Positions 58,190-61,973 of a stretch of 64,000 nucleotides of DNA are shown here, one piece after another. This stretch comes from Polynucleobacter paludilacus (GTDB taxonomy: Bacteria > Pseudomonadota > Gammaproteobacteria > Burkholderiales > Burkholderiaceae). The notes beneath the pieces are model-generated. The model was not told where the DNA came from, made no database searches, and worked only from the letters and a program-made list of their open reading frames with translations. The translations under genes and the position numbers were made by a program. The stretch is from assembly GCF_018687595.1 (NCBI RefSeq), contig NZ_CP061298.1, positions 620,001 through 684,000 of the forward strand, in the 5' to 3' direction. Every line of letters begins with the position of its first letter. Within the stretch, counting starts at the first letter, position 1.

Positions 58190-58213
58190 AAGTTTGGTGC
58201 CCAGAAAGGGACT
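58190..58213. other. att repeat, distal copy
   Basis: Begins AAGTTTGGTGCCCAGAAAGG and continues GACT. It is identical over 24 bp to 61882-61905; the copies differ at the next base on each side. It reproduces the last 19 nt of tRNA-Leu plus 5 nt beyond. Confidence 0.85.
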
Positions 58214-58601
58214 TCTTACACCTGATTTTATATGGCTTGTAGGGTAGAGTGTGCGATTATTGTGTCGCGCAAAATAGTGATTTGATATAAAACAGAATCA
58301 TTTAGGCTTTTTTAAGAATATTAAGCCTACGCTTACTTTTCTTCAAATCTGTAGTTTGATGCTTTAGCTCGATTGCAATGTATTAAAACTAAGTTCCCCG
58401 AGGTTGACTCTACTACTAACTGTGTGGAAAAACAGTTTTTAAAGCTCTTATCTACTTATTCTCCAGAGTGACTCCTTGACTCAAAGCGTCTAATTAGCCT
58501 TTAGACTCTAATTTTCAACTAATTAAGCTATTTAATTAAATATTAGCCATTTTGATGTAAATTATATATAACTTTCATAGACAATATTAAGGAGAGCAGA
58601 G
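58214..58601. other. A/T-rich non-coding left end of the element
   Basis: About 390 nt with no supported ORF. It holds a TAGGCTT/AAGCCTA inverted repeat (58303-58309 and 58323-58329) and AACTGTGTGGAAAAACAGTT (58418-58437). The latter contains CTGT-N8-ACAG, like a LexA box, but is also a 6-bp hairpin followed by TTT. The promoter of the next gene should lie in its last 100 nt. Confidence 0.5.
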
Positions 58602-59438
58602 ATGAAATTAACCAAAATCGCAGTGGTGGCAATGGGCTTGTTATCAAGTGCTGCATTTGCACAATCATCCGCAGTAAATTTAAAGACACAAACTGGAAAT
58701 GAGATTGGGGCAACCTTATCCTCTTACTCTTACAGCGAGCCAAGTTTGAGCGTCTCTATGAAAGCCACCAATTGGGGTATTGACTACACTGGCACTTATG
58801 CTTTTGGAAATGACTGGTTCGTTCTTGGTAATGCTAACTACAACAATGGACCCGTAACCTACAGTGGTACTGGCACCCAAAGCGGTATTCCGCAGTATTA
58901 CTACGACTTTAAGGGTGTCGTTGGTTACGATTTTGCATTCGATGGATATAACCTATCCCCATACGCTGGATTTGGTTATCGTTTCTTGAGTCAGCAATGG
59001 GGCGGCACATCAACCTCCACTGGTGCATTGGGGTATGACAGACAGAGCACTTACAACTATTTGCCCATTGGCTTAATTCACAGATTTGCAGTGAATAATA
59101 ATCAGGCGAAGATTGAAACTACGCTTGAATATGACTACCTTTTATCAGGAAATCAATACAGTGGCCTCGCCTCGCTAAATGGGACGCATAGTGGCACTAC
59201 TTACTCCGGCATTCCGAACGTTAATAATTCTCAAAACTCAGGATATGGATTAAATCTTACCGTCATGTACAAAGAGGAGAGCTGGGGCGTTGGACCATAC
59301 TTCAAGTATTGGAATATTCAGCAATCTAATACTAATTACGCCACAATCACGAAGAATGGCTCAGCCGTTAATTACTACGAATACGAGCCAGCAAACAATA
59401 CCAAAGAATATGGTATCAAAGCAATTTATCGCTTTTAA
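58602..59438 (+). CDS. outer-membrane beta-barrel protein carried by the element
   Basis: A 278-residue protein with a clear signal peptide (MKLTKIAVVAMGLLSSAAFAQ). The mature part is rich in Tyr, Gly, Ser and Asn and in alternating strands (WGIDYTGTYAFGNDWFVLGNANY, LSPYAGFGYRFLSQQWGG, WGVGPYFKYWNIQQ), and ends in a Phe strand (YGIKAIYRF), as outer-membrane barrels do. AAGGAG lies 7 nt before the ATG. A good terminator follows. I do not recognise a specific family; an adhesin, receptor or small porin are possible. Confidence 0.75.
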   Translation: MKLTKIAVVAMGLLSSAAFAQSSAVNLKTQTGNEIGATLSSYSYSEPSLSVSMKATNWGIDYTGTYAFGNDWFVLGNANYNNGPVTYSGTGTQSGIPQYYYDFKGVVGYDFAFDGYNLSPYAGFGYRFLSQQWGGTSTSTGALGYDRQSTYNYLPIGLIHRFAVNNNQAKIETTLEYDYLLSGNQYSGLASLNGTHSGTTYSGIPNVNNSQNSGYGLNLTVMYKEESWGVGPYFKYWNIQQSNTNYATITKNGSAVNYYEYEPANNTKEYGIKAIYRF

Positions 59439-59455
59439 TCAGTCGATTAAGATAC

Positions 59456-59480
59456 AAACCACCTTCGGGTGGTTTTTTAT
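59456..59480 (+). terminator. terminator after the element's barrel gene
   Basis: AAACCACC-TTCG-GGTGGTTT is an 8-bp stem with a stable UUCG tetraloop running into TTT, starting 18 nt after the stop codon. Confidence 0.9.
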
Positions 59481-59584
59481 TACTCCTAGTCAGATTTGTT
59501 CTTGTAGTTGATATTTATAGTGGTTATTTTTTGTTTTGCTTACACGATTTGGAATAATGACAAGAGAAGGGCTATTGCTTTAAT

Positions 59585-60049
59585 ATGAAGGTGAAGAATA
59601 TTCTATTGAGTGCTTTTTCGTTAGTGCTGTGTGCAAATATAAGTGCACAAACTTCTAAAGAAGAGTCCAATAATCCTGAGAAAGAAACCCAAGCAAAAGG
59701 CTCAGGCAATGTCACTCTGGTCTTCCAGCGCGAATCAAGCATCGTCCTTAAGGATGCAAAGATATTTGTTGATGGCACTCAGTATTGCGCCTTAGGAAGT
59801 GGCGATGAATGCACCGTTAAAACAAGTGCTGGAAGACACATCCTTAAAGTTGATGCAAGTATGACCACTGGAGAATTTTCCAAACCCTTTACCTTCGAAG
59901 ACTCTAAAACTTACACATTTATCATTACTCGAAAAATGTCTTACACGGTGGGTGCAGTCTTTGGAATGCTCGGAACCATAGTTAATAAAGCAGCCAATCA
60001 AGACGAGAATGGAAGTGATGATGGAACCTTCACCATGGAATTAAAGTGA
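59585..60049 (+). CDS. small exported protein, PEGA/DUF2846-like
   Basis: A 154-residue protein with a signal peptide ending ANISAQ (about residue 22). The mature region has a beta-rich core: GNVTLVFQRESSIVLKDAKIFVDGTQYCALGSGDECTVKTSAGRHILKVDASMTTGEFSKPFTFEDSKTYTFIITRK. This 'decoration plus anchoring of a ligand-like strand' layout recalls PEGA or DUF2846 proteins. A Gly-rich hydrophobic stretch (about residues 121-135) follows. Its stop overlaps a GTG upstream of the next gene. Function unknown. Confidence 0.6.
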   Translation: MKVKNILLSAFSLVLCANISAQTSKEESNNPEKETQAKGSGNVTLVFQRESSIVLKDAKIFVDGTQYCALGSGDECTVKTSAGRHILKVDASMTTGEFSKPFTFEDSKTYTFIITRKMSYTVGAVFGMLGTIVNKAANQDENGSDDGTFTMELK

Positions 60050-60057
60050 GACTGAAG

Positions 60058-60639
60058 ATGAAACATCTACTAACCTTTTATTGGTTGGTAGTTTCTCTTT
60101 TTATTCTTGGGGGCTGCTCTGCAATGGTTGGCTCTAAGAATAAGGATTTTGTCCCCGGTCGCAGCGGTGCCACTGATCAGAAATCTACTTTGGTTATTTG
60201 TAGGCCACCTAATTTAAATCAGGTTTTTAATAGCGCCGGCATTACGATTAACAGTAGTCCAGTCACTGAGATTGGCTCAGGAGAGGCCTACTCGATAGAT
60301 TTTATTAGACCAACTTATTTTTTAGTAACAATTTCTTTGCCAGTAACGGATGTAATTAAAAATTTATGGGAAAAGCAAAAAGAATTTAATCTAAGGCTGA
60401 ATCCTAGCGTACCAACTCACTATGTAATTTTGTATGTAAGTAATGGTGATATTGATGCATCCCCCAATATGGCTGGCAATCCAGCAAAAGAAACTGTTTG
60501 GACAGTCACTACACATTGGTCAGCTAAAGAGGTTGATGCTATCACCTTCAGTAATAGCTGCCAAAAGACAAGGATGAATTATCTTGTCGTAAAGACATTG
60601 CCTCTTATCAACGATGTAGGCGAATCAAGCCGTAAATAA
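60058..60639 (+). CDS. lipoprotein carried by the element
   Basis: A 193-residue protein. MKHLLTFYWLVVSLFILGGCSAM gives a lipobox ILGGC with Cys20 lipidated. An in-frame GTG at 60046 (overlapping the previous stop) is an alternative start. The central part STLVICRPPNLNQVFNSAGITINSSPVTEIGSGEAYSIDFIRPTYFLVTI resembles DUF2846-type lipoproteins. With the preceding gene it forms a two-gene unit, probably a pair of interacting envelope proteins. Role unknown. Confidence 0.6.
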   Translation: MKHLLTFYWLVVSLFILGGCSAMVGSKNKDFVPGRSGATDQKSTLVICRPPNLNQVFNSAGITINSSPVTEIGSGEAYSIDFIRPTYFLVTISLPVTDVIKNLWEKQKEFNLRLNPSVPTHYVILYVSNGDIDASPNMAGNPAKETVWTVTTHWSAKEVDAITFSNSCQKTRMNYLVVKTLPLINDVGESSRK

Positions 60640-60660
60640 TAGGTAGGACCTAAATATTTT
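60640..60660 (+). terminator. weak terminator after the lipoprotein gene
   Basis: TAGGT-AGG-ACCTA (60640-60652) is a short 5-bp hairpin right after the stop codon, followed by AATATTTTTTA. Confidence 0.4.
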
Positions 60661-60731
60661 TTATCGTGCTAGCCAATACTTTTTGGCTCCGTTTTGCACA
60701 TTTCCGTCTTAATGACCCAGAAAACGGGCTG

Positions 60732-61715
60732 TTAATTCAATCGCTCGGCAATCTCTTGAGCTGTATCGCGGTAATAAACCTGAAGCTGATTGATATTTTT
60801 ATGACCAATGATCTTGGCTAAAGAAAGAATGTCGACTTGTTTGGCTAGTTTTGTGCAAGCATTGGCTCTGGAATCATGAAAGTGCAGATCAGTAATGCCA
60901 GTCTTATTCATAGCTTTTCTAAACAAAGCATCTCTTTGTTTGTTGGTGATATCAAAACAAGTCTCAGTATCCTTGCTTAGCAGCTCCAAGATCCTTATGG
61001 CCTCTAATGTCAATGGTACTTCGCGCTTAGCTGATGCGGTCTTGCCTTCTCTTACGGCTGCGGTTCTGCCCTTAATGTCATCCCATCTCAAACCAAGAAT
61101 TTCGCCAGCTCTCATGCCGGTTTCCATAGCAAAGAGCATGGCATAACCCACTCTGGAGGAGATCGTAGTAGGGGGTTTATCAGCTCCCAAAATATAAGTT
61201 AAGGATTCAATTTCTTTACTACTAAATAGGCGATCTCTGGACGGGCCATCTTTAGGACGTTTAAGATCTTTTAAAGGGTTCACTGTAAGCCATTGCCACT
61301 CCTTTATAGCCACGTTGATAGCGGATGATAGAAGAATCCATTCTCTTCTAACAGTGCCCTCTGAGACTGTTTTTAGCCTACTGTTGCGCCACTTACCAAA
61401 GTCATTGGCTGATAGGTCTCCTAACTTACTAGAATATAGGGGCTGCTCTTTAAAGCGCCGAATTAAATTGCGCTCCCAGATTACACCTTTATGTTTAGGA
61501 GACTCTTCTTCCGCGTATCGCTCCAGTAGTTTTCCAAAGGTGACAGATTTCACCTGCCCACGTTTACCAGATTCAATCTCATTCTCAACCATGGCTGCCC
61601 ATGCTTGTGCTTCTGTTTTAGTGGGGAATACTTCGCTTGGTCTATGAGCTTTACCATCTACCCGCTTATTGATAATAGCCCGCCATTTATTTCCGAACCT
61701 TTTAATGCTTGCCAT
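60732..61715 (-). CDS. tyrosine recombinase / integrase
   Basis: A 327-residue phage-type integrase. The catalytic set is complete: Arg202 (METGMRAGEILGLRW), a lysine near 225-230, His280 and Arg283 (HFHDSRA), His305 (IIGHKN) and Tyr314 or Tyr315 (LQVYYRDT). The N-terminus (MASIKRFGNKWRAIINKRVDG) looks like an arm-type DNA-binding domain, followed by a SAM-like core-binding domain. It lies next to tRNA-Leu and should have catalysed integration there. Length and residues suggest it is intact. Confidence 0.93.
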   Translation of the reverse strand: MASIKRFGNKWRAIINKRVDGKAHRPSEVFPTKTEAQAWAAMVENEIESGKRGQVKSVTFGKLLERYAEEESPKHKGVIWERNLIRRFKEQPLYSSKLGDLSANDFGKWRNSRLKTVSEGTVRREWILLSSAINVAIKEWQWLTVNPLKDLKRPKDGPSRDRLFSSKEIESLTYILGADKPPTTISSRVGYAMLFAMETGMRAGEILGLRWDDIKGRTAAVREGKTASAKREVPLTLEAIRILELLSKDTETCFDITNKQRDALFRKAMNKTGITDLHFHDSRANACTKLAKQVDILSLAKIIGHKNINQLQVYYRDTAQEIAERLN

Positions 61716-61729
61716 GATTGGCCTCTTAA

Positions 61730-61762
61730 ATGTGTGTCACATGTGTGTCGGATGTGTGTCAT
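61730..61762. repeat. three 11-bp tandem repeats upstream of the integrase
   Basis: ATGTGTGTCAC, ATGTGTGTCGG and ATGTGTGTCAT follow each other without gap (61730-61740, 61741-61751, 61752-61762), 15 bp upstream of the integrase start. Nine bases are identical in each. The period is about one helical turn, so a protein would contact one DNA face. Arm-type integrase sites or an autoregulatory operator are both plausible. Confidence 0.75.
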
Positions 61763-61816
61763 GGTAGCGAGTAAATAAGAATAAAACAAGATAAATAAAG
61801 GGTTTGTGGGAATATT

Positions 61817-61862
61817 AAAAAACCCCGTGAAGTCTGGCTTGGAGGCCTATTCTACGGGGTTT
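61817..61862 (-). terminator. terminator between tRNA-Leu and the integrase
   Basis: On the minus strand, AAACCCCGT (from 61862-61854) pairs with ACGGGGTTT (61828-61820), and three more T residues plus AATATT follow. The loop of 25 nt contains a smaller GGC/GCC pairing. It should end the tRNA-Leu transcript before the integrase gene. Confidence 0.75.
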
Positions 61863-61881
61863 AGAGGGTTAAAACGGGGGA

Positions 61882-61905
61882 AAGTTTGGTGCCCAGAAAG
61901 GGACT
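61882..61905. other. att repeat, tRNA-proximal copy
   Basis: Identical over 24 bp to 58190-58213. Positions 61887-61905 are the last 19 nt of tRNA-Leu, including the encoded CCA and the acceptor stem; 61882-61886 lie just outside. Confidence 0.85.
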
Positions 61906-61973
61906 CGAACCCCCACAATCTTTCGATCGCCAGCACCTGAAGCTGGTGCGTCTACCAATTTCGCCATCTGGGC
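61887..61973 (-). tRNA. tRNA-Leu (anticodon CAG)
   Basis: An 87-nt class II tRNA. GCCCAGA at the 5' end pairs with TCTGGGC before the encoded ACCA. The anticodon loop is TTCAGGT within CCAGC/GCTGG, giving anticodon CAG for CUG codons. A variable arm (CGATCGAAAGATTG region) and the T arm GGGGGTTCGAGTCCC follow. Its 3' end serves as the attachment site of the mini-element. Confidence 0.96.

What the first reader, a model, noticed from the sequence alone, without database searches (positions are those of the whole stretch)
58190..61905. Complete 3.7-kb mini integrative element in the 3' end of tRNA-Leu(CAG)
Seen: a 24-bp identical direct repeat at 58190-58213 and 61882-61905; the right copy is the end of tRNA-Leu, the left one abuts the DUF1622 stop codon; an apparently intact tyrosine recombinase lies next to the tRNA. 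Known: many integrases use tRNA 3' ends as attB. Inferred: this is a tiny mobile unit with only three cargo genes and no transfer or replication genes, perhaps a satellite using another element's machinery.
Basis: partly seen in the sequence, partly recalled or inferred. Interest (0 to 1): 0.75.

Follow-up and report, generated by a model that had tools for sequence, protein, structure and literature searches.

The report
Mini island with phage-type attachment ends
A 3.7-kb piece of DNA has inserted itself precisely into the end of a leucine tRNA gene of a freshwater Polynucleobacter bacterium, using an integrase and attachment ends related to those of temperate phages, but apart from that integrase it carries three cell-envelope genes and no recognisable phage genes.

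Summary
Confirmed: an identical 24-bp repeat (58190-58213, 61882-61905) brackets one intact tyrosine recombinase and three other genes; the right copy is the 3' end of tRNA-Leu(CAG). It is the only exact direct repeat of 18 bp or more in the window. Relatives G016 and G127 have the empty site: the tRNA lies 5 bp after the DUF1622 stop, one repeat copy. Against G016 the flanks overlap by exactly 24 bp.

New: the closest integrases whose surroundings I saw are at the same tRNA in another Polynucleobacter (G152, 69%) and on three viral contigs (70-72%). All three viral contigs carry the tRNA-Leu 3' end uninterrupted before int, so they look like phages with a free attP. The element also keeps a terminator-like hairpin, three arm-type repeats before int, and a left end resembling the arms of two of the three phages.

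Cargo: one outer-membrane-type protein and two exported proteins, one known from no other genome searched. No excisionase, replication, packaging or transfer gene was found. It is a tRNA island built on a phage attachment module. Whether it arrived small or is a collapsed prophage is unresolved; I lean slightly to the first. New member of a known kind.

The parts
58190..58213 (.). left attachment site: displaced copy of the tRNA-Leu 3' end plus 5 bp
   Evidence: exact 24-bp repeat; single copy in the empty sites of G016 and G127
58214..58280 (-). P-arm-like stretch with two arm-type sites (58249-58254 and 58261-58266, read on the minus strand)
   Evidence: 70 bases next to the core (three of them part of the repeat) align with L103, L104 and the G112 unit: summed score reached by 0 of 2000 dinucleotide shuffles; singly 2, 7 and 2 of 2000; no signal against L105 (517 of 2000)
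58602..59438 (+). cargo 1: 278-aa outer-membrane beta-barrel-like protein (signal peptide and C-terminal Phe, recalled criteria)
   Evidence: ORF; 14 of 186 genus genomes including its own; no Pfam, PHROG, PADLOC or NCBIfam hit; alignment A2
59456..59475 (+). terminator-like hairpin after cargo 1
   Evidence: weak, since 4 such sites were found in the region against a mean of 3.4 in shuffles
59585..60049 (+). cargo 2: 154-aa exported protein, distantly DUF2846-like
   Evidence: 18 of 186 genus genomes including its own; PHROG 890 lipoprotein E 6e-6; one homologue (L177) matches DUF2846 at E 2.8e-5, below Pfam's cut-off, while P0003, P0004 and cargo 2 itself do not
60064..60639 (+). cargo 3: 191-aa putative lipoprotein (ILGGC, recalled criterion); start codon chosen by me
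   Evidence: only its own record with E up to 0.001 in a search of 5.77 billion proteins; 1 of 186 genomes, its own
60732..61715 (-). tyrosine recombinase (integrase), reads away from the tRNA
   Evidence: PF00589 E 2.1e-23; expected catalytic residues present; groups with three viral-contig integrases and G152
61730..61760 (-). P' arm: three direct repeats ATGTGTGTC (plus-strand letters) at 61730-61738, 61741-61749, 61752-61760
   Evidence: sequence; three similar sites at the same place in L103, L104, L105, G152 and G112, judged by eye
61815..61862 (-). terminator-like hairpin between tRNA and int (CCCCGT...ACGGGG, then T run)
   Evidence: seen in window, L103, L104, G152; in L105 the stem reads CCCCAT...ATGGGG; not listed by the terminator scan, whose loops are limited to 3-8 bases
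61882..61905 (.). right attachment site: restored 3' end of tRNA-Leu plus 5 bp
   Evidence: exact 24-bp repeat
61887..61973 (-). tRNA-Leu(CAG), the integration target
   Evidence: ARAGORN, Rfam tRNA

Best explanation
The segment is a small genomic island that entered the 3' end of tRNA-Leu(CAG) by recombination between a phage-type attP and the tRNA, catalysed by its own tyrosine recombinase, which restores the tRNA and leaves a 24-bp copy at the far end. Its ends form a bipartite attachment site (core, two left-arm sites, three right-arm sites next to int, terminator) of the same build as in temperate phages that use the same tRNA end. Between them lie three envelope genes instead of a phage genome. 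Shown: precise insertion, empty sites, relationship of int and of the right-hand att region to phages, resemblance of the left arm. Inferred: that int works; that it moved as a unit of about this size, which I favour only slightly; that excision would need a directionality factor from elsewhere, for instance a co-infecting tRNA-Leu phage; and that the benefit to the host, if any, is a change of the outer surface.
For: Empty sites in G016 and G127; the G016 flank alignments overlap by exactly the 24 bp. Two copies of the core pattern on one contig in 1 of 186 genomes. Int groups with L103, L104, L105 and G152 at SH-aLRT 100, inside a larger set made mostly of viral-contig integrases (quick tree). 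The core CCCTTCCTGGG[C/T]ACCA begins 171, 181 and 178 bases before the int match in L103, L104 and L105, with no tRNA in the fetched loci. Arms compared. Outside int and the att region nothing in the element matched the fetched parts of these three contigs at E 0.001. Int is uninterrupted; dN 0.19-0.24 against L103, L104 and L105 with dS too high to compute, which speaks of selection along the whole path, not of the window branch alone.
Against: No excisionase: three phage xis-like proteins gave nothing better than E 5 in the element, with the phages as positive control, and one of them (L104) gave nothing in 186 genomes, an answer that the tool calls weak without a control genome. The same 3.7-kb unit is known from one genome only, so transfer at this size has not been seen. 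Of the four close integrases whose surroundings I saw, three are on viral contigs and the fourth (G152) is on a contig that ends about 0.5 kb beyond int. The left arm is not like that of L105.
Confidence: 0.55

Rival explanations
1. Collapsed prophage. A full-length tRNA-Leu phage integrated here and lost everything between int and the left arm; the three envelope genes are its lysogenic-conversion genes or later arrivals. The remnant keeps both ends but is a fossil.
For: The three viral contigs with close integrases are 35.8, 47.2 and 7.9 kb long, and in L103 the left arm lies just beyond the xis-like gene. G112 has a 1,093-bp unit at the same tRNA with core copies at both ends and arm-type sites (by eye) but no integrase, which looks like such a deletion. 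A related tRNA-Leu(TAA) element in G093 has core copies about 37 kb apart, one with a mismatch, the size of a prophage.
Against: No phage gene other than int was recognised and nothing else matched the fetched phage parts. Cargo 1 had no relative in GenBank phages or IMG/VR, nor had P0003, the closest cargo-2 relative, in IMG/VR; the IMG/VR scans reach close relatives only. The cargo frames are open and closely packed.
Confidence: 0.35
2. Phage satellite that is excised and packaged by a helper phage.
For: Its core matches the attP of viral contigs; a helper could supply the missing directionality factor.
Against: No AlpA/xis, primase, capsid or terminase gene recognised; no sequence shared with the fetched parts of the candidate helpers except int and the att region. 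Packaging sites were not looked for.
Confidence: 0.08
3. No mobile element: chance repeat beside a resident integrase gene.
For: None found.
Against: Empty sites and unique 24-bp repeat.
Confidence: 0.01

Closest known systems
tRNA/tmRNA genomic islands with tyrosine integrases (Islander database, PMC4383910, passages read)
   Same: tRNA target, displaced 3'-end copy, integrase gene inside; 3.7 kb passes the database's 2-200 kb length filter
   Different: Small compared with the size peaks at 13.6 and 39.9 kbp reported there
Viral contigs of the L103/L104/L105 type (IMG/VR)
   Same: Integrase 70-72% identical, same core (one base differs in L105), terminator-like hairpin and three right-arm sites; similar left arm in L103 and L104
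   Different: They have a xis-like gene and many further genes, in L104 a phage repressor; the element has none of these and carries envelope genes
tmRNA islands moved by jumbo phages (PMC12595487, abstract and two result sections read)
   Same: Integrase and direct repeats, no recognised transfer genes
   Different: Those sit at tmRNA, carry alpA, and range from under 20 to over 70 kb
PICMI satellites (PMC10803314, passages read)
   Same: Very few genes, one tyrosine integrase
   Different: The PICMI model requires int, alpA and prim, typically beside fis; alpA and prim not found here
Tycheposons (as described in PMC10872708, passages read; the original paper was not read)
   Same: tRNA site plus tyrosine recombinase plus cargo
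   Different: Given there as 4-200 kbp; relationship of the recombinase not tested

Membership tests
tRNA genomic island (Islander criteria) | intact tRNA plus displaced end fragment in the right orientation | tested here: met
tRNA genomic island (Islander criteria) | integrase gene within the interval | tested here: met
tRNA genomic island (Islander criteria) | length 2-200 kb | tested here: met
   3.7 kb (filter as given in PMC4383910)
Intact prophage | structural, packaging, replication and lysis genes | tested here: not met
   the four ORFs scanned against Pfam and PHROGs
PICMI satellite | int, alpA and prim together (model in PMC10803314) | tested here: not met
   only int recognised
tmRNA intY/alpA island | tmRNA site and alpA | tested here: not met
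   tRNA-Leu site; no alpA recognised
Integrative mobilizable or conjugative element | relaxase or conjugation genes | tested here: not met
   none among the four ORFs
Integrative mobilizable or conjugative element | oriT | not tested
   no oriT search was made
Bipartite phage-type attP | core flanked by arm-type sites on both sides | tested here: met
   by sequence comparison only: left arm against shuffles, right arm by eye; binding not tested, and no similarity to the left arm of L105
Functional integrase | recombination activity | not testable with these tools
   only open frame and expected residues
Tycheposon | membership of that recombinase clade | not tested
   no tycheposon recombinase was fetched

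The most novel reading that the evidence does not exclude
Polynucleobacter phages that use tRNA-Leu give rise to a recurring class of non-autonomous mini-islands: bare attP arms with (window) or without (G112) an integrase, loaded with fast-changing genes, here of the envelope, and moved with a phage's integration factors. A further hint: the nearest cargo-2 relative (P0003, 78%) and an integrase (P0125, 47%) are both listed from JGI with the same longest-contig length, 5,097 bp, and so may be neighbours on one small contig, which could not be opened here.
Probability: 0.2. Interest if true: 0.65.

Novelty: new member of a known kind. Interest (0 to 1): 0.4.

Why it matters
It is a cleanly bounded example of a phage attachment system separated from its phage and carrying only envelope genes, with empty sites and free-phage counterparts of the same attP at hand. 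That makes one open question directly testable: whether such tiny islands move as units with help from phages, or are what remains of prophages in small, streamlined genomes.

Tried and rejected
Chance repeat: rejected. PICMI, intact prophage, relaxase-bearing element: defining genes not recognised (see membership test). Site as a frequent hotspot: not supported. Among 186 genomes I saw an insert or integrase at tRNA-Leu(CAG) only in G000, G152 and G112, though flanks were read in only part of them. A second tRNA allele, GTCCTCTTCTGGGCACCA, occurs in 22 of 186 genomes; of eight loci with it (L018, L025, L027, L032, L034, L035, L037, L043) none had a relative of this integrase within the fetched flank of at most 1.5 kb, and L037 ends at the tRNA. 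The allele CCCTTNCTGGGTACCA occurs in 1 of 186, G112. Anti-phage defence cargo: one weak PADLOC hit of cargo 2 to Cas5, E 0.005, discounted. Integrase near other copies of the cargo genes: none in the fetched loci tested (L080-L092, L157-L178, L180) with four integrase queries and a profile. Homology of cargo 3 with cargo 2: suggestive only, hhalign probability 54%, partly signal peptide. Solved structures for cargo 1: none by sequence. A second core copy beside the tRNA-Leu(TAA) integrase of G184 was not found in the fetched stretch, which runs to the contig end. Rfam found only the tRNA. Integrase in GenBank phages and PLSDB plasmids: only relatives under 60% identity. Paper searches (listings) showed no title describing this element; that is no proof of absence. 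PMC12884075 was searched for passages on island size and not used.
Full report
Observation. The two 24-bp copies are exact and in place. No other direct repeat of 18 bp or more exists in the 64-kb window. The right copy is the 3' end of tRNA-Leu(CAG), 61887-61973 minus, plus five further bases. The left copy follows the DUF1622 stop codon. Between them lie cargo 1 (58602-59438 +), cargo 2 (59585-60049 +), cargo 3 (60064-60639 +) and an integrase (60732-61715 -). GC of the 500-base windows lying inside the element is about 34-45%, against about 41-53% in the flanks.

Who it is. The window's genome G000 is a single 1.67-Mb contig. Genome G152 is of the same genus; its contig C27 of 68,599 bases corresponds in length and content to a contig of a named Polynucleobacter MAG, isolate AQU-01. 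So the genus is Polynucleobacter.

Empty sites. In G016 the tRNA starts 5 bp after the DUF1622 stop codon, as the displaced tRNA end does at the window's left junction. BLAST of the G016 locus gives two matches to the window, 86.7% over 1,893 positions to the left and 92.8% over 1,496 to the right, which overlap on G016 by exactly the 24 repeated bases. G127 has the same arrangement. Of 186 genus genomes, 117 contain the pattern TCCCTTNCTGGGCACCA; only G000 has two copies on one contig, while G144, G022, G180 and G187 have two on separate contigs of fragmented assemblies. G112 is a special case: its pattern copy lies 1,093 bases beyond a tRNA whose own end reads CCCTTCCTGGGTACCA, the core seen in L105; the stretch between has arm-type sites near both ends (by eye) but no integrase.

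The integrase. It is a PF00589 tyrosine recombinase. In the genus, 72 of 186 genomes, its own included, have some match at E 0.001 or better, but only G152 has a close one (69%), again next to tRNA-Leu(CAG) and rnr, on a contig that ends about 0.5 kb beyond int. In IMG/VR, 41 contigs encode relatives; the best three are 72, 70 and 70% identical. A protein search found 1,752 relatives, the best other than its own at 72-73%; their surroundings are not shown by that tool. On a quick tree of 77 rows the window, L103, L104, L105 and G152 form a set with SH-aLRT 100. GenBank phages and PLSDB plasmids held only relatives under 60%.

The attachment site. L103, L104 and L105 carry CCCTTCCTGGG[C/T]ACCA beginning 171, 181 and 178 bases before the int match, with no tRNA in the fetched locus, which reads as a free attP. 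Of L103 and L104 only 12.5 of 35.8 and 21.0 of 47.2 kb were fetched. Between core and int, the window, the three contigs and G152 share a terminator-like hairpin and three arm-type repeats, judged by eye on the alignment. On the other side, the 70 bases next to the left core align with those of L103, L104 and G112 better than shuffled sequence: 2, 7 and 2 of 2000 shuffles reach the score, and 0 of 2000 the sum of the three; L105 gives no signal (517 of 2000). The 70 bases include three bases of the repeat itself. Two arm-type sites lie there, at 58249-58254 and 58261-58266. Upstream of attP the three contigs have a small related gene (60-93% identical among them). The L104 copy has a best PHROG match of unknown function and a weaker one to excisionases (E 1.2e-4), so 'xis-like' is an inference. 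No counterpart was found in the element, with the phages as positive control. Searches of G000 and of all 186 genomes with the L104 copy were also empty, but the tool warns that such an answer shows little.

Cargo. Cargo 1 has a signal peptide and a C-terminal phenylalanine as in outer-membrane barrels (recalled criteria). It occurs in 14 of 186 genus genomes, its own included; in four of the six wider loci that I read it lies beside genes that I read by eye as secretion or pilus type. Cargo 2 occurs in 18 of 186, its own included, and is distantly DUF2846-like through one homologue. Cargo 3 is known from this genome only. Cargo 1 gave no match in GenBank phages or IMG/VR, and P0003, the closest relative of cargo 2, none in IMG/VR. 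No integrase was found in the fetched stretches around other cargo homologues. A possible exception is P0003 (78% to cargo 2) and P0125 (integrase, 47%): both list a JGI contig of 5,097 bases as their longest, which suggests but does not prove a shared contig.

How it most likely works. Integrase binds core and arms, recombines a circular attP with the tRNA end and restores the tRNA. The hairpin between tRNA and int would keep tRNA transcription out of int. Excision would be expected to need a directionality factor, which the element does not appear to encode. Insertion is shown by the empty sites; everything about present activity is inference. The main rival, internal collapse of a prophage, explains the phage-type ends equally well and is backed by the G112 unit and by the tRNA-Leu(TAA) element of G093, whose core copies lie about 37 kb apart. 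It is disfavoured, not excluded, by the lack of any recognised phage gene but int and by cargo without known phage relatives.

Compared with what is known. By the Islander criteria (PMC4383910, passages) this is an ordinary tRNA island near the small end of the accepted size range. It fails the gene requirements of PICMIs (PMC10803314, passages) and of the tmRNA intY/alpA islands (PMC12595487, abstract and two sections). The review PMC11389934 (passages) sets out reductive and de novo origins of helper-dependent elements, which is the question left open here.

Noticed in passing
L078 (G000:C1:962000-981000), int at 972719-973714, primase at 974073-976385: The same genome carries a second tyrosine recombinase (30% identical) followed by a P4-family phage/plasmid primase (TIGR01613, E 7e-85) and a large ORF read by eye as a helicase: a possible separate satellite or island.
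   Followed up: partly
L144 (G112:C1:685500-690500), unit of 1,093 bp at tRNA-Leu(CAG): An integrase-less unit with core copies at both ends, arm-type sites by eye, and small ORFs (122 and 66 aa the longest on the minus side).
   Followed up: partly
L179 and L182 (G093:C1, about 671561 and 708852): Core copies about 37 kb apart, the second with one mismatch, beside a tRNA-Leu(TAA) integrase: probable full-size prophage; its genes were not annotated.
   Followed up: partly
P0003 and P0125: A cargo-2 relative and an integrase are both listed with a longest contig of exactly 5,097 bases from JGI.
   Followed up: no
L171, L173, L174, L176: Homologues of cargo 1 sit in a similar gene neighbourhood in four other Polynucleobacter genomes, beside genes read by eye as GspF-like and other pilus/secretion type.
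   Followed up: partly
L177 and L178 (G052, G007): Two neighbouring genes related to cargo 2 in each of these genomes.
   Followed up: no
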